Positions 6,005 through 13,799 of a stretch of 14,870 bases of DNA are shown in pieces. Within the stretch, counting starts at the first letter, position 1, and each line of letters starts with the position of its first letter. The position numbers and the translations under genes are program-made. The notes under the pieces were generated by a model. The model searched no databases and was not told the origin of the DNA. It worked only from the letters and a program-made list of their open reading frames with translations. This DNA comes from Acidithiobacillus sp. (GTDB lineage Bacteria; Pseudomonadota; Gammaproteobacteria; Acidithiobacillales; Acidithiobacillaceae): contig DAIAVG010000014.1 in NCBI GenBank assembly GCA_027445725.1, positions 1 to 14,870 on the forward strand, in the 5' to 3' direction.

Positions 6005-7048
6005 TTATGACTCCTTACCCAGGTAGTAAGGGCTTTGCAAATACCAGCCGTGCAGGTGGCGTAGCAGGGCGATGAGGACGGCGGTGACGGGTAGTGCGAG
6101 CAGTAGGCCGACAAAGCCGAAGAGTTCGCCGCCCGCGAGCACGGCAAAAATGACAGCGACCGGGTGCAGGCCGATGCGATCCCCCACCAGATAAGGGGTG
6201 AATACCATGCTTTCCAGTAGTTGGCCGATGCCAAAGACGATGAGTACCCAGAGGATGGGCAAAAAAGCACCGGTCTGTACGTACATGGCGAGGCTGGCCA
6301 TGGTTATCCCGCTTACGACGCCAAGATAGGGCACAAAACTGAGCAGTCCCGCCACCAGGCCGACGAGGATGGCGGTTTGCAGGCCGACCATACTGAGGCC
6401 AATCGCGTAACTGGTGCCCAGGGCCAGCATCACCAGAAGCTGTCCGCGCAAAAAGGCCATGAGCATGGTGTCCGCATCGCTGGCCAGACGCTGGGAAAGT
6501 GGCAGATGGTGCGGCGGGATGAGTGCGGCCATACGGGCAATGAGACGTGGCCAGTCGCGCAGCAGATAGAATCCCAGAACCGGTACCAAAATGATACTGA
6601 GTATACTACTGATCAGGCCGGAGCCGGAGCTCAGCGCTAATTGGAGACTGCGTCCCAGCCACCCCGCCAGTTTCTGAGCGTTGGCAGTGGCGTAATGGGT
6701 AATACTTTGGCTGTCGAGGTGGATGCCGATCCGCGCGGAGAACTGCGGGATGAGTTGAGTTTGCAGGAGTTCGACATATTTTTGCAGGTATTCGATGAAC
6801 AGCGAGGACTGGTGACGGATGGCGGGGAGCAGGGCCATGATGATCCCCGCCATGATCACAATGACGAGGACGAAAACCAGTGTGGTGCCCCAGGTGCGAC
6901 TGATTCGGTGTCGTTGCAAGCGGGTCACCAGCGGATTGCCGAGATAAGCAAGGATGCCGGCCACCAGAAAGGGGCTGAGAATGGGAGAGAGACGATACGT
7001 CAGCCAGCCCAGCAGGATAAGGACGGCCAGCACAAAAAATCTTTGCAT
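6005..7048 (-). CDS. AI-2E family transporter / PerM-like permease
   Basis: A 347-residue inner-membrane protein of the UPF0118/AI-2E exporter superfamily, whose members include E. coli PerM and TqsA and some Na+/H+ antiporters. The N-terminus has two hydrophobic segments (FFVLAVLILLGWLTYRLSP, PFLVAGILAYLGNPLV with the typical ILAY-x-x-x-P pattern). A third segment is followed by an amphipathic domain of about 70-150. The C-terminal half has several membrane segments with family motifs FLRGQLLVMLALG, PYLGVVSGI and HPVAVIFAVLAGGELFGFVGLLLALPVTAVL. The substrate is not predictable. There is no clear Shine-Dalgarno before the ATG at 7048. It is upstream of hemG with a three-base gap. Whether the pairing means a porphyrin-related role is speculation. 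Confidence 0.85.
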   Translation of the reverse strand: MQRFFVLAVLILLGWLTYRLSPILSPFLVAGILAYLGNPLVTRLQRHRISRTWGTTLVFVLVIVIMAGIIMALLPAIRHQSSLFIEYLQKYVELLQTQLIPQFSARIGIHLDSQSITHYATANAQKLAGWLGRSLQLALSSGSGLISSILSIILVPVLGFYLLRDWPRLIARMAALIPPHHLPLSQRLASDADTMLMAFLRGQLLVMLALGTSYAIGLSMVGLQTAILVGLVAGLLSFVPYLGVVSGITMASLAMYVQTGAFLPILWVLIVFGIGQLLESMVFTPYLVGDRIGLHPVAVIFAVLAGGELFGFVGLLLALPVTAVLIALLRHLHGWYLQSPYYLGKES

Positions 7049-7084
7049 TGTTCGTGGGGCCCCCAGTCAAGTATCCAACAATTA

Positions 7085-7162
7085 TGCGGTCAGGATAACC
7101 CAGTCCGCTAGGGCTTCGCTATGGGCACGGTAAATTTGTTCTCAAACCTCCTGCGGTCAGGA
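7085..7162 (+). repeat. 11-base direct repeat in the permease-rhodanese gap
   Basis: TGCGGTCAGGA occurs at 7085-7095 and again, exactly, at 7152-7162. The second copy forms the loop and the 3' arm of the hairpin at 7147-7164. The rest of the 7049-7262 gap shows no gene I can support. Confidence 0.6.
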
Positions 7163-7174
7163 GGCTGAGTTTTT
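7141..7174. terminator. Strong hairpin with T run after the rhodanese operon
   Basis: CCTCCTG (7147-7153), loop CGGT and CAGGAGG (7158-7164) form a perfect 7-bp stem, extended by CTCA (7141-7144) with TGAG (7166-7169). TTTTT at 7170-7174 follows on the plus strand, giving a textbook intrinsic terminator in that direction, although no plus-strand gene precedes it. On the minus strand it lies 90-120 bases beyond the rhodanese stop without a proper T run, so it may serve as the operon end only weakly. Confidence 0.6.
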
Positions 7175-7243
7175 AGTCATCCGCAGATAGCAGAAGAAGA
7201 GGCGGTTGCGGAAGCAGAGGCCGCGCATCATCGAAGAGCTACC

Positions 7244-7947
7244 AATTAATCAGCTGGTAGTGTTAATGTGCCTGCGGATTGTCGTAGCTGAATTGTCTCC
7301 AGCACTGTTGCCATGGGTGACATGCCTGCGAGATGGTTCCTGGAGCATCGCCGATAGCGATAGGATACCCATTCTTCTTCCAACCATTGACACCGCCGCG
7401 CAGCGCGTAAGATTTATATCCTAACATGCGAAACACGCCCGCAACCTGATTAGAAAGCTGACCCGTCGGGCACATAAATATTACCGTTTTATTTTTTGGG
7501 ATCTTGTTTTCCTTGACGGCATCAGCCAGGGTAAGATATGGAATATTTAATGCCCCTGGCACGTGGCCTTGCTGATACCCATAGATACGTTGCCATCCCC
7601 TTCCTGTACATACATGTTTATCAGAATTGGCCCCGCAAAAAAACTTATTATAGGATGGCGTTCTCACGTCCACGAGATAATATTTTTCCGGGGATTTATT
7701 TATTGCGAGAAGCAGTTCTCTATCGGTGTACTGGTAAGTTCCATAGGGATGCGGTTTCTGATCAGAGATAAAACTGTTCAAACGGTCCTGCAAAATGGCA
7801 TCGACATTTCCAGTGGAGGACGCGGTATCCCCCGCAAATGCGGGTAGACTGACCGATGCCCCTATGATTATGGAAACCATAACGGCTATTGCAAATTTGT
7901 TGGCCATATAAAACCTCTTTTGAGTAAGTGAATTAACCAGCTGGTTG
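7244..7947 (+). repeat. Imperfect 17-base direct repeats flanking the rhodanese gene
   Basis: AATTAATCAGCTGGTAG at 7244-7260 and AATTAACCAGCTGGTTG at 7931-7947 differ at two of 17 bases. They lie just outside the stop and start of the rhodanese gene. The first copy sits in a short hairpin (CTACCA/TGGTAG) and the second is one arm of the 12-bp inverted repeat at 7931-7962. Confidence 0.7.
7263..7907 (-). CDS. Periplasmic rhodanese-like sulfurtransferase (P21 type)
   Basis: A 214-residue exported single-domain rhodanese; such proteins move sulfane sulfur through a persulfide on an active-site cysteine. The signal peptide is MANKFAIAVMVSIIIGASVSLPAFA, probably cut before Gly26. The domain shows YYLVDVRTP (77-84), GHVPGALNIPY (114-124) and the active loop CPTGQLSNQ with Cys146. 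The loop's sixth residue is Leu151, where classic rhodaneses have Arg or Lys. Four more cysteines (91, 100, 196, 202) are present. The start at 7907 is fixed by AAGAGG at 7914-7919 and the signal peptide. An upstream in-frame extension translates only the inverted repeat. It is the last gene of the DoxDA cluster and resembles the P21 rhodanese I know from A. ferrooxidans. By eye it is richer in A and T than its neighbours. Confidence 0.88.
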   Translation of the reverse strand: MANKFAIAVMVSIIIGASVSLPAFAGDTASSTGNVDAILQDRLNSFISDQKPHPYGTYQYTDRELLLAINKSPEKYYLVDVRTPSYNKFFCGANSDKHVCTGRGWQRIYGYQQGHVPGALNIPYLTLADAVKENKIPKNKTVIFMCPTGQLSNQVAGVFRMLGYKSYALRGGVNGWKKNGYPIAIGDAPGTISQACHPWQQCWRQFSYDNPQAH

Positions 7948-7962
7948 ATAAGCTGGTTAATT
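7931..7962. repeat. Perfect 12-bp inverted repeat between doxDA and rhodanese gene
   Basis: AATTAACCAGCT (7931-7942) and AGCTGGTTAATT (7951-7962) are exact inverse complements around an 8-base spacer. In the transcript they give a strong stem just after the doxDA stop and 23 bases before the start of the rhodanese gene. An mRNA-stabilising or partial termination element, or a protein-binding dyad, would fit. No T run follows, so full termination is unlikely. Confidence 0.75.
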
Positions 7963-7966
7963 AAAG

Positions 7967-9049
7967 TTACGGGTAGGTTACGGACTGCTTCCAAACGTGA
8001 TTGTTAACCGAGGTGATCTCCAGCAGATAACTTCCCGGAGTCAGTGTTACACCAGAGTTTATCGATCCCGGCAGGCTGATGGTAGCCGAAGCGCCCACCG
8101 GCCCTACGATGCCGAATTTCCCCGCATGCAGTTGTTGATAGGGAAAGTCGTTGTGGAATGCGCTTTTCGGAAGCTGGGCGAGATCTTTACCCAACCATTG
8201 TTCGACCACCTTTCCGCTCTTCGCCTCCAGTAGACGTATCACCAGCGCATTGGAAGGCTCGGCAGCGACACCGGCATCCACATAGGCATGGAAGCGCACA
8301 CCACCATCGGCGCTCAATTGAGCATCTTTGATTTGCCAGTGGTGCTTGGCCGGACTGACCGGCCCCCCGTGGAAGGGCGTGATGACCGAACCGCGATAAT
8401 AGCTATAGCTTCCAACAACGAAGGCCAGCACGATCAGAAACAGGCCCAAAGCCAGCTTTTTGAAGGCCTCATCGCTCAAGGGTAGAGGCAGGCTACCGCC
8501 AAACCAGCGAAAAAGCGTGCTGTTGGCGCGACTCGGCTTGCGGGCGAGTAACCAGTTATCCATGGAATAGGCGCCGCTGCCGGCCAGAAAGAGTGCAACG
8601 CCCATACCAAAGTTAGATGCGGCCATCGTCCACTCATCAATACAAGTGGCGCCCTGCCATCCGAAGAGCAGCATGAGCACCGTAGAAAGTCCGATGGTGG
8701 CCACGGCGGCCAGGCGGGTCCAGAGACCGGCGATGAGCATGAAGCCCGCGATCATTTCGACGGCACTGAAAATGATCACCCCGGCGTAGAGCAGAGTGAA
8801 GTGATTCAACAAAAAGGCTACCAGATGGTTAGTACCCAGCAAGGCACCAGGCATCGCTGTCTGAAATTTATAGGCCATCCAGTGGCCATGGACGTCCAGT
8901 TTCTGCGGTCCATAGATGAAGCGACGGGTTCCGCCGCCCCAATAAATCCAACCCTGAACAAAGCGGATCGCCAACAGGGCGAGAGCGGCTATGCGCCATC
9001 CGCGATCAGCCCCTAAAACGGGGCTTTTATCAGATAAGGTTGTCGACAT
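7967..9049 (-). CDS. doxDA: Thiosulfate:quinone oxidoreductase, fused DoxD-DoxA
   Basis: A 360-residue membrane protein joining the two TQO subunits of Acidianus in one chain. TQO oxidises thiosulfate to tetrathionate and passes electrons to the quinone pool. The N-terminal DoxD part (about 1-170) has the expected membrane segments and motifs: LAIRFVQGWIYWGGGTRRF, then LFGWQGATCIDEWTMAASNFGMGVALFL. A further membrane segment, LALGLFLIVLAFVVGSYSYYRG, starts the DoxA part, and a periplasmic beta-rich domain ends TPGSYLLEITSVNNHVWKQSVTYP. The ATG at 9049 was chosen over one at 9055 because AGGAGG at 9059-9064 is 9 bases away from it but only 3 from the other. It lies 22 bases after the binding-protein gene and before the rhodanese gene. 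Activity is inferred from family. Confidence 0.9.
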   Translation of the reverse strand: MSTTLSDKSPVLGADRGWRIAALALLAIRFVQGWIYWGGGTRRFIYGPQKLDVHGHWMAYKFQTAMPGALLGTNHLVAFLLNHFTLLYAGVIIFSAVEMIAGFMLIAGLWTRLAAVATIGLSTVLMLLFGWQGATCIDEWTMAASNFGMGVALFLAGSGAYSMDNWLLARKPSRANSTLFRWFGGSLPLPLSDEAFKKLALGLFLIVLAFVVGSYSYYRGSVITPFHGGPVSPAKHHWQIKDAQLSADGGVRFHAYVDAGVAAEPSNALVIRLLEAKSGKVVEQWLGKDLAQLPKSAFHNDFPYQQLHAGKFGIVGPVGASATISLPGSINSGVTLTPGSYLLEITSVNNHVWKQSVTYP

Positions 9050-9058
9050 GAGCATGCT

Positions 9059-9064
9059 CCTCCT
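9059..9064 (-). promoter_or_regulatory. Ribosome binding site that decides the doxDA start
   Basis: AGGAGG on the minus strand is 9 bases before the ATG at 9049 and 3 before the ATG at 9055. This favours the shorter protein starting MSTTLSDK. Confidence 0.75.
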
Positions 9065-9071
9065 AAAGGAC

Positions 9072-10082
9072 TTACTTCGCCTGATAAGGCTTGAACCCGT
9101 AGTGTTCAAAGATTTCAAGCGCTTTCGGTGACTTCAGGAAATTCACCCAGGCCTGCGCCCACTTGGGGTGCGGCGCACCTTTCACGACGGCCGACGCGTA
9201 AATGGCGGTGGTGTTGTCCTTGGCCGGTATGGAGATATGGCTGATGGGGTGCCCTGCCTGCTCTTGGAAAATGGCCTCGGATTTCCAGGTTACACCCGCA
9301 TCCGCCAGTCCCTGCATGAGGAAAAGCGGCGTTTGCCGATGATGGATATGAGTCAGGATGGTTTCGCCATTTTTGACTTTGGTGTTATAGACCATGTTGG
9401 CCAATTGTGGCCCACCCGCTTTGGTGAGCGACATTTTGATCTGCCGTGCCACGCCTTCCCAAGCCGGATTAGGCATGGACAAGCGCACGCCGGGCTTGCC
9501 CAGATCTTGCAGATTTTCGATGTGAGCCGGATTTCCCTTGGGGATCATGATGGTCAGGTCGTTAGTCACGTAGGGCACTGCAGGACCTTGCAACAATCCT
9601 TTTTGAATATAGTAGTTCACTTTCTTGAGGCCGGCCGCATAGACGTCGGGTTTAACCGTCCAGGTCATGTTGCCGATGGTGATGGTGTTGCCATGCTCCA
9701 TCTGCTTGATCAGGATGCCGGGGGGGAGTGTCTCGTAGTAGATTTTGCCTTTCAGTGCGGGGTATTGCTTCTCGAAGGCATGGACCAGGGGCGCCATGGC
9801 GAAGTAGTAATTTCCGCCGACGAAAATGGTCAGTTGCGGGTTGTCGATGCTGCCGTGGAAGTCAGGCAGGTCATCAATTTCGGGGACGGTGAAATCGAGG
9901 CCCTTGTCTACGGCCGGGTTATTTTCACCGTGCTGCCAAGGCGGAAACACATCCGATTGGTAACGTGGGGCTTCAGCCTTACCACCCCATCCGATGTCGG
10001 AGGCCTGGGCAAGGCCCATTCCGGCGAAGGCGGATGCCATGGATGCTGCGAGAATCGTCCTCATAATGACATGATTTTTCAT
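9072..10082 (-). CDS. Orphan periplasmic solute-binding protein (type II fold)
   Basis: A 336-residue exported protein resembling the substrate-binding components of molybdate/sulfate-type ABC importers. The signal peptide is MKNHVIMRTILAASMASAFAGMGLAQA, probably cut before Ser28. The first lobe begins with NPQLTIFVGGNYYFAMAPLVHAFEKQYP and contains TLPPGILIKQM. The hinge region and second lobe include NDLTIMIPKGNPAHIENLQDLGKPGVRLSMPNP and DAGVTWKSEAIFQEQ. The C-terminal helix region is GAPHPKWAQAWVNFLKSPKALEIFEHYGF, which is typical of ModA-like proteins. There is no permease or ATPase gene nearby, so it may act as a periplasmic anion carrier or sensor and not in uptake. Its place between the DsrE-like gene and doxDA (22-base gaps on both sides) suggests a sulfur oxyanion ligand, which is inference. 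AGGAG precedes the ATG by about 7 bases. Confidence 0.82.
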   Translation of the reverse strand: MKNHVIMRTILAASMASAFAGMGLAQASDIGWGGKAEAPRYQSDVFPPWQHGENNPAVDKGLDFTVPEIDDLPDFHGSIDNPQLTIFVGGNYYFAMAPLVHAFEKQYPALKGKIYYETLPPGILIKQMEHGNTITIGNMTWTVKPDVYAAGLKKVNYYIQKGLLQGPAVPYVTNDLTIMIPKGNPAHIENLQDLGKPGVRLSMPNPAWEGVARQIKMSLTKAGGPQLANMVYNTKVKNGETILTHIHHRQTPLFLMQGLADAGVTWKSEAIFQEQAGHPISHISIPAKDNTTAIYASAVVKGAPHPKWAQAWVNFLKSPKALEIFEHYGFKPYQAK

Positions 10083-10104
10083 AACATACTCCTGATGTGC
10101 GGTG

Positions 10105-10920
10105 TTATTTGGCGTAATGGAAGCCGGCTTGCTCTAACTCCGGCAAAGTACCCACGATTCCCGGCGTGAGTACCACACCAGGGATGAGGTGATTGGTGAA
10201 CTCGGCCGCCATTTCTTCGTGGCTGAGCTTGTCCGGGTTGATACCTTTGTTGTGCAAGGCCATGGTGAGCTCCCAGACCTCGTTGTGGCAGGCGAGGAAA
10301 ACGGCTCCGCGCCGTTGCAGGACGATGATGCTGTTGTCGTGTGGTGAGTAGACGCCTTCTACATCATTGAAATCGGCCGGATTGGCGGTGGATGCCGGTG
10401 GCTGTTTCAGCCAGATGTTGCTCGCCCATTTCCCTTTGGTGAAGGTCGATAGATACTTGTTCCAGATATAGTTGTCATACAAGGCCAAATGGGCTGTGCC
10501 ATGGGTGGCCGATACGGTAAGAAAATCCGGGTGCTTGAAGGACCATATCTGAGCGTTCATTGCGTTGCGCATCAGGTTGAGCCACGGGCTTTCTAACGCG
10601 GTGTTATCCCAGACCTGCTTCGATTTTGGTGCGTAACGAAGGATCTCGGTAAGGGCTGCGTCATCCCACTGATCAGGGCTCGTCAGTATCATGGGCACCG
10701 TCTTGAAATCCCGCCGCCGCGGCGCTTTGGCCAGGCGGTCGCTCAAGTCCTGCAGGGTGCCGGCTCCGCTGGGTAGCAGGTTGGCGGGATCTCCACTCAT
10801 CCCGGCAGCCATGGCGCTGGTGTTGTGGCCGACGGAGGCTACTGCTACGGCACCTGCGCCGATGAGGGCACGCTTCATGGCATCGCGCCGGGTGATGGTA
10901 TTGTTTGTGCGTTTGATCAT
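10105..10920 (-). CDS. Tat-exported DsrE-like protein of the doxDA cluster
   Basis: A 271-residue protein with a twin-arginine signal: TRRDAMKR (Arg11, Arg12) followed by the hydrophobic ALIGAGAVAVASVG, with likely cleavage after SAMA (residue 38). The mature part has no transmembrane segment. Its C-terminal region, IIVLQRRGAVFLACHNEVWELTMALHNKGI, then NHLIPGVVLTPGIVGTLPELEQAGFHYAK, is DsrE/DsrF-like, with the single cysteine Cys211 at the position often used for sulfur binding. Tat export implies folding, possibly with a cofactor, before transport. DsrE family members carry sulfane sulfur, so a periplasmic sulfur carrier is a reasonable but unproved role. AAGGAGAG lies about 9 bases before the ATG at 10920. 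It follows the transporter gene by 75 bases and precedes the binding-protein gene by 22. Confidence 0.8.
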   Translation of the reverse strand: MIKRTNNTITRRDAMKRALIGAGAVAVASVGHNTSAMAAGMSGDPANLLPSGAGTLQDLSDRLAKAPRRRDFKTVPMILTSPDQWDDAALTEILRYAPKSKQVWDNTALESPWLNLMRNAMNAQIWSFKHPDFLTVSATHGTAHLALYDNYIWNKYLSTFTKGKWASNIWLKQPPASTANPADFNDVEGVYSPHDNSIIVLQRRGAVFLACHNEVWELTMALHNKGINPDKLSHEEMAAEFTNHLIPGVVLTPGIVGTLPELEQAGFHYAK

Positions 10921-10975
10921 TGCATGACTCTCCTTGTGGGTGATTGGTACTTCTTCTGAACGGGACTTCCAGTCA

Positions 10976-10998
10976 TAGCCTGCTGTAGGCAGCGGCTA
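10976..10998. repeat. Intercistronic hairpin after the TDT transporter gene
   Basis: On the minus strand TAGCCGCTG, loop CCTA and CAGCAGGCTA form a 9-bp stem with one bulged A, starting at the transporter stop codon. No T run follows, so it may trim or stabilise mRNA more than terminate it, and it may set different levels for the transporter and the downstream sulfur genes. Confidence 0.5.
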
Positions 10999-12141
10999 TA
11001 TGCGGTCTTCTTTAGAAATCATCATTCCTGTCTCTATAGAGAGGGAGGGGTCACGGAACAATCTGGCTGTCCACATGCCTGAGAGGCTGCGTTTGGTGAC
11101 GATCACCCAGAAAACAGCGAGCAGGACGGTGAAAGCCGTCCCCAAATACAGGAAGGGAGAAAATTGTGTTTCTTTGGCGAGAAGGTAGGTGGCACTGTCA
11201 AAAACGCCCAAGGGGAAGGTGAAACCCCACCAGCCCATGTTGAACGGCAACCCTTCGCGCAGATACCGTAAAGTGAAAACTATCGCCATGATCATCCACC
11301 ACAGACCAAATCCCCAAAGCACTAAAGCCACCATAACCCCAGCATCCTGCCAGAGCAGCGCCATCGGGGCGAGGTCGGTTAAAGAGAAAATATGGCGACT
11401 TGCGGCCCCCAAGGTGATCATAGCCATGGCGCCCGTACCCAATGGCCCGAGAGGCAGCCAGGCAGAAACCGCCATATCCACATGGGGCAGCTTATGCAGT
11501 GTGAGGCGCAGGAAGAGTATGGTGAGTATTCCCATGGACAACGGCACTGAAATCGCCCAGAGCACATAACTGACGAAGATCACACTGGTTCCGAGTATTG
11601 GCGCCAAATGTTGCGCGACCAAGCCACCACTGGCGGCAGCAACCTCCGGCGGAACGATGGGCAGGAGCCAGGCCGCTGTCATACGCTCCATACGGTGCTC
11701 TTGGGCCGTGAACATATAAAACGGGACCACCAGCACGGAGATGACAGACAAGGCAACATCGATCCACCACATCGCATTAGTCCAGACCATGGACGCCGCA
11801 CTGATCGGCCAAAGAGTGATCATCCCGTTGACAATGGTGGCAAAGCCCATAGGAATGCAACCGATGAACAACGGCTGCACCGGATGGTGGAAAAGACGCC
11901 GAAAGCTCTCTGGGAAGAACACGGCGCGCGACAAAAACATCAATGAAAACAATGCAAAAAATAAGACGTTGACACACCAGAGCGCCTGCGCCACCACCGT
12001 CAGTGCCGGGTGGCCATAGGGGAAGTCTCCCAGCATGAGCGCAAGAACACCGGTGCCCATGGTCGCGGCAAACCAGTTAGGCGTGAAATGACGAAGAATC
12101 TCTTTGGGATCGTTCCCGGGAGCTGCTGAAAAAAAAGACAT
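10996..12141 (-). CDS. TDT (TehA/Mae1/SSU1) family transporter
   Basis: A 381-residue integral membrane protein of the tellurite-resistance/dicarboxylate transporter family. Members include TehA, the malate permease Mae1, the sulfite exporter SSU1 and plant SLAC1 anion channels. The signature start is FTPNWFAATMGTGVLALMLGDFPYG, and roughly ten hydrophobic segments follow. Later motifs include LPLGPLGTGAMAMITLG and NMGWWGFTFPLGVFDSATYLLA, both typical of the family. The substrate is unknown; in front of a thiosulfate-oxidation cluster a sulfur oxyanion such as sulfite is the tempting guess. The ATG at 12141 follows GGGGT; an alternative in-frame ATG at 12174 would add 11 residues. It heads the minus-strand set and is divergent from the LysR gene. 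Confidence 0.88.
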   Translation of the reverse strand: MSFFSAAPGNDPKEILRHFTPNWFAATMGTGVLALMLGDFPYGHPALTVVAQALWCVNVLFFALFSLMFLSRAVFFPESFRRLFHHPVQPLFIGCIPMGFATIVNGMITLWPISAASMVWTNAMWWIDVALSVISVLVVPFYMFTAQEHRMERMTAAWLLPIVPPEVAAASGGLVAQHLAPILGTSVIFVSYVLWAISVPLSMGILTILFLRLTLHKLPHVDMAVSAWLPLGPLGTGAMAMITLGAASRHIFSLTDLAPMALLWQDAGVMVALVLWGFGLWWMIMAIVFTLRYLREGLPFNMGWWGFTFPLGVFDSATYLLAKETQFSPFLYLGTAFTVLLAVFWVIVTKRSLSGMWTARLFRDPSLSIETGMMISKEDRI

Positions 12142-12259: not shown

Positions 12260-13177
12260 ATGTCAACTAAAAAAATCGATCCAGAACTACTGTTGGTGTG
12301 GGCCCAAGCTGCACGTAAAGGTAACCTGCACGAGGCAGCTGATGCCTTGTTCATGAGCCAGCCTGCAGTATCCCAGCGACTCAAGCAGCTGCAGGATCGT
12401 ATTGGACACACATTGTACCTACGCAATCATCGCGGGATAACCCCCACGCCAGCGGGGCTGTCCTTACTGCATATCGCTGAGCAGGTAGAGTCGGCACTAG
12501 AAGCCATAAAGTATTTAGGTGATAACGAACCCGGCCGTCTTTACGGTAGTTTGGCTCTGATAGCCAGCCATAGTAATGCTGAAACACTTATTCCTAAAGC
12601 CGTTGCTGATTTTCGGAAAATGCATCCAGATGTCAGCTTTCGCCTCACGACAACAAACAGTCGGCAGGCCAAGCGCAATCGCAATCAGGCAGACCTTATT
12701 TTTGTGGAGGATGACAAGGCATTAGGTGATACCGGGGGATGGATTCAGGAAACGCTTATAGAGACTGATATCAGAATTTTAGTACCAGAGAAACATCACT
12801 GGATTGAGTATGGAAAAGCAATTCCGATAAGCTGGTTGAGTGAAGAAGCATTAATTTGGAGAGAAGAAGGTTCAGGCATCCGTGAGCATGTCATTGATGC
12901 TATTTCAAAACATGGCGTACGCCCAGAAATCCGCTATGAGTTTAATGGTCTTGCAGCCATTCGTAATGCGGTAAGCTGTGGTTTGGGAGTTAGTTTTGTG
13001 TCTGGATTAAATGGGATTGATTCCAAATCAGGGGACTGTACACTCCCCATAGATCCGCCAATAAAACATGTATTATCAGTTATTTATAGCGGCGCAAAAA
13101 ACCATGTTGCTTTGTCTTTTTTATCCCTGCTTAAAAACCAGTTGGTCAACCGTGGGCCGGACCCGATTCTCTCTTGA
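12260..13177 (+). CDS. LysR family transcriptional regulator
   Basis: A 305-residue LysR-type regulator. The N-terminal winged helix-turn-helix is clear: LLVWAQAARKGNLHEAADALFMSQPAVSQRLKQLQDRIGHTLYLRNHRGITPTPAG (about 9-65). A linker helix leads to the substrate-binding domain from GSLALIASHSNAETLIPKAVADFRKMHPDVSF, with the usual late motif GLAAIRNAVSCGLGVSFVSGL. The ATG at 12260 follows GAGGGG; longer in-frame starts reach into the transporter gene. It is divergent from the transporter-doxDA set with a dyad between, so it probably controls that set and itself. The effector is unknown. By eye the gene is more A/T rich than its neighbours, a hint of separate origin. The last few residues (GPDPILS) overlap the transposase relic, so the original C-terminus may have been changed. 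Confidence 0.9.
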   Translation: MSTKKIDPELLLVWAQAARKGNLHEAADALFMSQPAVSQRLKQLQDRIGHTLYLRNHRGITPTPAGLSLLHIAEQVESALEAIKYLGDNEPGRLYGSLALIASHSNAETLIPKAVADFRKMHPDVSFRLTTTNSRQAKRNRNQADLIFVEDDKALGDTGGWIQETLIETDIRILVPEKHHWIEYGKAIPISWLSEEALIWREEGSGIREHVIDAISKHGVRPEIRYEFNGLAAIRNAVSCGLGVSFVSGLNGIDSKSGDCTLPIDPPIKHVLSVIYSGAKNHVALSFLSLLKNQLVNRGPDPILS

Positions 13178-13406: not shown

Positions 13407-13799
13407 CTATGCCAAGCGTCGGTAAAACCATCTCTTCACCCCTTCCACCGCCATCAGATACACGATGACCATGGCCATAAGTATCGAGAAGAAATCCAAC
13501 GGCAGTGCCACAAATCCCAGCGCGGCGCCTATTGGGGTCAAAGGCAGTAGGGCTGCCACCGCAACCACGGCTAATGAAGTTCCCGCCAACAAGGGGTGCG
13601 GACGGCTGGTCAAGGGATTAAAGCGGGTACGAATGACGAATATTACCAGAACCTGGGTGGCGATGGATTCGATGAACCAGCCGGTGTGAAACATCTCCTC
13701 GCCGGCATGGAAAACATGCAACATGATATAAAAAGTGAGGAAGTCGAAGAGCGAACTGATCGGGCCGATCACCATCATGAAGTTGCAGAAGTAGCGCAG
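13407..13799 (-). pseudogene. 3' fragment of an mgtA-type Mg2+-transporting P-type ATPase
   Basis: The minus-strand frame reads LRYFCNFMMVIGPISSLFDFLTFYIMLHVF, then FHTGWFIESIATQVLVIFVIRT, RPHPLLAGTSLAVVAVAALLPL, and ends in VEGVKRWFYRRLA with a proper stop. This is the last membrane region (about 130 residues) of MgtA/MgtB type ATPases, which normally have about 900. The frame meets a TGA at 13800-13802, and the phosphorylation (DKTGT), nucleotide-binding and earlier membrane domains are absent, replaced by unrelated sequence. It is a non-functional remnant left by a rearrangement. The similarity covers essentially the whole fragment, so the family call is firm though the exact member is not. 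Confidence 0.82.

What the first reader, a model, noticed from the sequence alone, without database searches (positions are those of the whole stretch)
7263..12141. Five-gene sulfur module around DoxDA with three exported partners and a transporter
TDT transporter, Tat/DsrE-like protein, solute-binding protein, DoxDA and rhodanese lie in one direction with short gaps (75, 22, 22 and 59 bases). Seen: three of the five carry export signals (Sec, Tat, Sec) and two are membrane proteins. Known: DoxDA oxidises thiosulfate to tetrathionate, and rhodanese and DsrE families carry sulfane sulfur. Inferred: a periplasmic relay in which the binding protein presents a sulfur anion to DoxDA and the carriers take up sulfane sulfur, with the transporter moving an anion product.
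Basis: partly seen in the sequence, partly recalled or inferred. Interest (0 to 1): 0.7.

Follow-up and report, generated by a model that had tools for sequence, protein, structure and literature searches.

The report
Known thiosulfate-oxidation operon around DoxDA
This five-gene stretch is the Acidithiobacillus operon already known for turning thiosulfate into tetrathionate, but its exported "thiosulfate dehydrogenase" is predicted to have the fold of DsrE sulfur-carrier proteins and travels, with a binding protein, next to different oxidising enzymes in other bacteria.

The parts
10996..12141 (-). TDT/SLAC1-family transporter, orthologue of AFE_0041 by gene order
   Evidence: PF03595 310.1 bits; TIGR00816 below cut-off; same place in L023, L024, L096
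10105..10920 (-). Tsd: Tat-exported thiosulfate dehydrogenase of the AFE_0042 type, predicted DsrE fold, invariant Cys211-His212
9072..10082 (-). Orphan solute-binding protein (SBP), ModA/sulfate-binding fold with its own conserved N-terminal segment
7967..9049 (-). DoxDA, fused DoxD and DoxA, thiosulfate:quinone oxidoreductase relative; single cysteine Cys136
   Evidence: PF04173 83.2 and PF07680 45.6 bits; Cys136 invariant in 30 rows, many of them close relatives
7263..7907 (-). Exported rhodanese-like protein, orthologue of P21/AFE_0045 by gene order
   Evidence: PF00581 52.6 bits; 67% identical in L024 and L096
12260..13177 (+). Divergent LysR-type regulator, possible regulator of the set
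   Evidence: PF03466 and PF00126; same divergent place in L023, 59% identical; not next to TDT in L024 or L096
7931..7962 (.). Perfect 12-bp inverted repeat with 8-nt loop between doxDA and the rhodanese gene
   Evidence: RNA fold -16.9 kcal/mol, z -5.0, no T-run after it

Best explanation
The genes are the dox operon of an Acidithiobacillus: a system on the periplasmic side of the inner membrane that oxidises thiosulfate to tetrathionate and feeds the electrons to quinone. Shown: gene identities, order, orthology to AFE_0041-0045, the predicted DsrE fold of Tsd with an invariant cysteine, and a Tsd-SBP pair kept across phyla. Inferred: SBP binds thiosulfate (or tetrathionate) and works as a partner of Tsd, not of an ABC transporter. 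Cys211 of Tsd holds a Cys-S-S-SO3 (thiosulfonate) intermediate that a second thiosulfate attacks to release tetrathionate. Tsd has no recognised cofactor motif and only one invariant cysteine, so DoxDA takes the two electrons in this genome, and TsdA cytochromes do so in others. TDT moves an anion and the rhodanese-like P21 handles sulfane sulfur, both as lineage-specific additions.
For: Orthology and sulfur induction of AFE_0041-0046 (PMC2754497); duplicated cluster (PMC2621215). AFE_0042 reported as thiosulfate dehydrogenase that reduces neither ubiquinone nor horse cytochrome c (review PMC6335251); a 2024 review's Figure 1 legend still lists '?, electron acceptor' (PMC10859504). SBP directly downstream of tsd in 22 of 38 contigs (4 of the other 16 end within 410 bp of tsd), DoxDA in 8 (all with SBP), TsdA-like in 9. 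Tsd and SBP co-occur: both in 5, Tsd only 1, SBP only 4, neither 388 of 398 genomes; Fisher p 9e-9 (3e-7 without the window's nearest genome), not corrected for relatedness. In the genus all 9 SBP genomes are among the 10 Tsd genomes of 17. DsrE fold and cysteine register. Short exported DsrE protein directly before SBP in L089, L130, L131, each with a TsdA-like cytochrome on the stretch. TDT, Tat protein, SBP and doxDA co-vary in Sulfobacillus acidophilus (PMC5114278, passages).
Against: No direct evidence of complex, ligand or electron transfer. DoxD occurs without Tsd in 6 of 17 Acidithiobacillus genomes (15 with DoxD, 10 with Tsd), so DoxDA does not need Tsd everywhere. Two further Tsd-DoxDA clusters of G001 show no SBP between the genes (L078, L079). 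SBP and DoxDA stay together where only a tsd remnant is left (L083). Against Acidithiobacillus DsrE and YchN profiles hhalign gave probabilities of only 0.1-0.5%, and Foldseek alone found no match with E <= 0.001.
Confidence: 0.5

Rival explanations
1. Parallel enzymes: Tsd and DoxDA are two independent thiosulfate oxidases that share an operon because they share regulation, Tsd giving electrons to a soluble periplasmic carrier and DoxDA to quinone; SBP is a buffer or sensor.
For: Reviews name TQO or TSD as alternatives (PMC10859504; PMC6335251). DoxD occurs without Tsd in 6 of 17 genomes; no DoxDA was seen on the fetched stretch in 30 of 38 tsd contigs. In G001 two Tsd-DoxDA clusters have no SBP between.
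Against: Among the 38 contigs, where DoxDA follows Tsd, SBP is between them in 8 of 8. Tsd reduces neither ubiquinone nor cytochrome c by itself (review) and has no recognised cofactor motif.
Confidence: 0.25
2. Carrier pair: Tsd-SBP is not the oxidase but a periplasmic thiosulfonate/sulfane carrier pair that receives or delivers sulfur for whichever oxidoreductase is present (DoxDA, TsdA) or for TetH.
For: TsdA is by itself a complete thiosulfate dehydrogenase (review), yet Tsd-SBP sits on the same stretch in 7 of 38 contigs and in 4 of the 8 plasmid regions opened. The one TetH-like partner that I aligned (L025) has an Asp at the residue that differs between 6l8a and 7cqy, which I take to be Asp325. 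DsrE proteins carry sulfur; a short DsrE stands in Tsd's place in L089, L130, L131.
Against: AFE_0042 is reported to be the ferricyanide-linked, tetrathionate-forming enzyme (review, for the gene and acceptors; ferricyanide recalled; the original paper was not held).
Confidence: 0.2
3. Assimilatory uptake: SBP serves an ABC transporter elsewhere and TDT is a dicarboxylate carrier; the cluster imports sulfur sources.
For: SBP is of the ModA/sulfate-binding fold; sulfate-binding models match weakly.
Against: No ABC permease or ATPase among the 15 window proteins scanned with Pfam; SBP misses the cut-off of all seven NCBIfam models that it matches; SBP follows Tsd across phyla.
Confidence: 0.05

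Closest known systems
Thiosulfate-quinone oxidoreductase complex operon (doxII, AFE_0041-0046) of A. ferrooxidans
   Same: Same five genes in the same order (TDT, Tat/Tsd, SBP, DoxDA, P21 rhodanese)
   Different: In A. ferrooxidans the cluster is doubled and divergent (AFE_0047-0050) with a further conserved gene after P21; L096 shows a second rhodanese and a ResA-like gene there; the window has one set and a divergent LysR gene beside TDT
TPY_2169-2172 operon of Sulfobacillus acidophilus
   Same: doxDA, SBP, Tat protein and TDT transporter in one operon that co-varies (PMC5114278, passages)
   Different: No rhodanese listed in it; higher on FeSO4 than on sulfur, opposite to A. ferrooxidans; I did not look at its sequence
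TsdA/TsdBA cytochrome thiosulfate dehydrogenase
   Same: Same reported reaction; found beside Tsd-SBP in other bacteria
   Different: Haem protein; window Tsd has one cysteine, so no CXXCH
DsrE/YchN sulfur-carrier fold
   Same: Predicted fold; cysteine at the end of a strand before a helix; profile match to exported DsrE, whose profile in turn finds 2pd2 and 1l1s
   Different: Exported by Tat, an insertion of roughly 50 residues and an N-terminal extension; no Pfam DsrE match

Membership tests
AFE_0042-type thiosulfate dehydrogenase (NF052225) | score over the curated cut-off of 300 | tested here: met
   413.8 bits over 1-259 of 259
AFE_0042-type thiosulfate dehydrogenase (NF052225) | tetrathionate-forming activity | not testable with these tools
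   reported for AFE_0042 in a review; original not held
DsrE fold/superfamily | DsrE fold | tested here: met
DsrE fold/superfamily | conserved cysteine after strand 3, in register | tested here: met
   C211 38 of 38, aligned with C152 of exported DsrE (29 of 29) at hhalign probability 51% (78% with the insertion left out)
Pfam DsrE (PF02635) | match to the Pfam model | tested here: not met
   no PF02635 match up to E 10; profiles of Acidithiobacillus DsrE and YchN also failed, probability 0.1-0.5%
DoxDA / TQO | DoxD and DoxA domains | tested here: met
   PF04173 83.2 and PF07680 45.6 bits, over cut-offs
DoxDA / TQO | NF041179 TQO_large_DoxD curated cut-off | tested here: not met
   74.5 against 300 bits
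ABC-transporter solute-binding protein | cognate permease and ATPase nearby | tested here: not met
   none among 15 window proteins scanned; the genome outside the window was not searched for one
TDT tellurite-resistance/dicarboxylate transporter (TIGR00816) | curated cut-off | tested here: not met
   183.6 against 237.25 bits; SLAC1 superfamily PF03595 met
TsdA cytochrome thiosulfate dehydrogenase | haem-binding CXXCH motifs | tested here: not met
   window Tsd has a single cysteine
Rhodanese | rhodanese domain | tested here: met
   PF00581 52.6 bits; activity not testable, orthologue P21 inactive per review

The most novel reading that the evidence does not exclude
A periplasmic two-protein cassette, an exported DsrE-fold cysteine protein plus a dedicated oxyanion-binding protein that has left ABC transport, is the common front end of chemically unrelated thiosulfate/tetrathionate systems. 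The same pair, or a short DsrE in place of Tsd, is plugged into DoxDA (quinone) or TsdA (cytochrome c), and the binding protein can give way to a TetH-like propeller. AFE_0042 'thiosulfate dehydrogenase' is then the sulfur-holding subunit that needs such a partner as electron acceptor, which would explain why its acceptor has not been found.
Probability: 0.35. Interest if true: 0.65.

Novelty: already known. Interest (0 to 1): 0.42.

Why it matters
The operon itself has been in the Acidithiobacillus literature since 2008-2009. What may matter is that the catalytic mechanism of DoxDA/TQO is called unclear (PMC6335251, passages) and the electron acceptor of AFE_0042-type thiosulfate dehydrogenase is still marked '?' (PMC10859504). 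A single invariant cysteine in a DsrE fold, an orphan binding protein tied to it, and exchangeable oxidoreductase partners turn both questions into simple tests: mutate Cys211, bind thiosulfate to SBP, and ask whether DoxDA or TsdA is the acceptor.

Tried and rejected
Tsd as a member of Pfam DsrE: no match; profile comparison with DsrE and YchN proteins of Acidithiobacillus negative, also with the insertion left out (those two groups match each other at 87%); only the exported DsrE family gave a match. BLASTP of one short DsrE against Tsd: nothing. Foldseek alone: best 3pnx (dsrE) E 0.26, then 3mc3 (DsrE/F) E 0.46. PDB by sequence: no relative of Tsd or DoxDA. Conserved operator between LysR and TDT: the window/L023 alignment shows no clear shared site by eye. 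Promoter and terminator scan: 2 and 6 hits against 4.5 and 5.7 in shuffles. Exclusion of DoxDA by TsdA: 0 of 38 contigs have both, but p is 0.09, so not claimed. Exclusion of SBP by the TetH-like propeller: 0.003 over 38 contigs, 0.01 over the 34 that run on past tsd; near-copies make both too small. More cases of SBP with short DsrE in the order of G141: SBP in only 2 of 78 genomes. SBP without Tsd in G021 and G076 stands near a branched-chain-type ABC gene set (by eye), so the pairing is not absolute; G352 has Tsd without SBP.

Limits: the 38 contigs come from patterns made from the window's own Tsd, so nearer relatives are favoured, and some are near-copies (L041/L042, L028/L029, L049/L050, L054/L058). 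Gene calls in fetched loci are my own script's, with recalled amino-acid frequencies. Many records are MAGs. The E <= 1e-40 cut for SBP was my choice. I opened 8 of the 21 plasmid records. The tree was a quick one with long branches. A1 left out two of the 40 sequences first tried (L057, L020).

Full report
What is there. On the minus strand the window encodes, in order of transcription, a SLAC1/TDT transporter (10996-12141), a Tat-exported 271-residue protein (10105-10920), a solute-binding protein (9072-10082), DoxDA (7967-9049) and an exported rhodanese-like protein (7263-7907). A LysR gene (12260-13177, plus strand) diverges from the transporter. The window's own assembly is not held; the nearest genome, G001, shares 94% of sampled words and carries the same five genes at 100% protein identity on one contig (L077).

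It is a published operon. Quatrini et al. 2009 (PMC2754497; passages) list AFE_0041 (C4-dicarboxylate transporter), 0042 (Tat protein), 0043 (periplasmic solute-binding protein), 0044 (doxDA), 0045 (sulfur-induced protein; P21 by the cited reference) and 0046 as the thiosulfate-quinone oxidoreductase complex operon, all with ratios towards sulfur. Valdes et al. 2008 (PMC2621215; passages) describe the divergent duplicate and a similar order in Gluconobacter. A promoter region for AFE_0041 is printed in PMC5506826 (passage). Sulfobacillus acidophilus has TDT, Tat protein, SBP and doxDA in one co-varying operon, there higher on FeSO4 (PMC5114278; passages). L096 and L024 reproduce the five-gene order plus the duplicate.

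The core is Tsd plus SBP. Of 38 genome contigs found with tsd, SBP is directly downstream in 22; 4 of the other 16 end within 410 bp of tsd. DoxDA is seen in 8 (all 8 with SBP), a TsdA-like dihaem cytochrome in 9 (7 with SBP), a TetH-like propeller next to tsd in 6, TDT in 4 and the P21-type rhodanese in 1. The propeller lies in SBP's place, directly downstream of tsd, in L044, L047 and L055, and upstream of tsd in L025, L026 and L027; no SBP was seen on these six, but L025 and L026 end soon after tsd (for L025, if it is G005 as contig length suggests, the only SBP found lies on another contig beside DoxDA). Over the 34 contigs that run on past tsd the chance of no overlap is 0.01, without correction for near-copies. 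The TsdA label rests on TsdA structures for the L043 protein (4wqc, E 7e-50), used as query for the rest; the L052 copy is only 34% identical. The TetH label rests on 6l8a (E 7e-44) for the L025 protein, with an Asp aligned to the residue that differs between 6l8a and 7cqy, which I take to be Asp325 of the TTH review. On a quick tree of 48 Tsd rows the SBP/TetH-like exchange takes at least 4 changes and the DoxDA/TsdA exchange at least 3. L044 and L046 show the exchange between flanking genes that look the same by length and order. In 398 genomes of the phylum Tsd and SBP occur together in 5, Tsd alone in 1, SBP alone in 4, neither in 388 (Fisher 9e-9, 3e-7 without G001, not corrected for relatedness). 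In 17 genomes of the genus, 10 have Tsd and 9 have SBP, all 9 inside the 10. By record titles the Tsd-SBP pair occurs in Pseudomonadota, a Hydrogenobaculum MAG and two Planctomycetota MAGs (L051, L054, L058).

A DsrE protein in Tsd's place. SBP also occurs on plasmids: 21 records, of which I opened 8. In 6 of these 8 a Tsd precedes SBP: Gluconobacter oxydans pGOX1 (a partial, unannotated tsd) and G. thailandicus with DoxDA; Bradyrhizobium betae, Methylobacterium radiotolerans, Bosea and one Paraburkholderia fungorum plasmid with a TsdA-like cytochrome. In the other 2 (another P. fungorum plasmid and Hymenobacter) a short protein annotated DsrE family stands there instead (PF02635 33.7 and 28.7 bits, cut-off 22.7); both stretches hold a TsdA-like cytochrome, that of Hymenobacter only 36% identical. 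Genome G141 shows DsrE (37.1 bits), SBP, TsdA-like and rhodanese in a row (L089). This is independent support for the DsrE nature of Tsd and for a DsrE-plus-SBP unit.

How it likely works. SBP holds thiosulfate, Tsd-Cys211 forms a thiosulfonate, and a second thiosulfate releases tetrathionate. Because Tsd has a single invariant cysteine and no recognised cofactor motif, a partner must take the electrons: DoxDA here, TsdA elsewhere. The steps after gene identity are inference. The main rivals are two parallel enzymes, and a carrier pair that does not oxidise. Facts that do not fit neatly: DoxD without Tsd in 6 of 17 Acidithiobacillus genomes, Tsd-DoxDA without SBP in two G001 clusters, SBP without Tsd in G021 and G076, and SBP-DoxDA beside a tsd remnant in L083.

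Is it in print? Searches of the held library found the operon and the dehydrogenase. In their listings and in the passages I opened I found no paper that calls AFE_0042 a DsrE-fold protein or reports the exchange of partners; I read no paper whole. One source name, 'intracellular sulfur oxidation DsrE/DsrF family protein' on the homologue P0112, shows that automatic annotation has touched on it. The library lacks most subscription papers, Kikumoto 2013 among them.

Verdict. The finding is real and already known as an operon; the proposed relay is partly supported. The DsrE identity of Tsd and the exchangeable partners are the parts worth following.

Noticed in passing
window 7931-7962: Perfect 12-bp inverted repeat with an 8-nt loop between doxDA and the rhodanese gene (RNA fold -16.9 kcal/mol, z -5.0), without a T-run; not seen by eye in the A. 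ferrooxidans-type L096 spacer.
   Followed up: partly
window 7001-8000: G+C falls to 0.48 over the rhodanese gene against 0.54-0.58 in the neighbouring windows on the 3' side and 0.50-0.57 on the other, and the gene is seen in only 1 of 38 related contigs; it may be a later addition.
   Followed up: no
window 13407-13778: 123-residue piece matching only the C-terminal end (738-864 of 867) of a magnesium-translocating P-type ATPase, probably a gene remnant.
   Followed up: no
L078 2539-4558; L079 2479-4444: Two further Tsd-DoxDA clusters of G001 with no SBP between the genes (gaps of about 146 and 95 bases); the L079 gap holds a GC-rich hairpin by eye. G001 is 81% complete with 5% contamination.
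   Followed up: partly
L083 8302-8446: Remnant of a tsd gene just upstream of an intact SBP-DoxDA pair in G006, which has an intact tsd on another contig, G006 C39.
   Followed up: partly
L090 5958-6485; L060 8079-8849; L130 6163-7024: YeeE/sulfur-transport or TauE genes near Tsd/DsrE-SBP pairs, possible sulfur carriers across the membrane.
   Followed up: no
window 7967-9049: The single cysteine of DoxDA (Cys136, motif WQGATCIDEWT) is invariant in 30 fetched rows and may be a functional residue of TQO.
   Followed up: no
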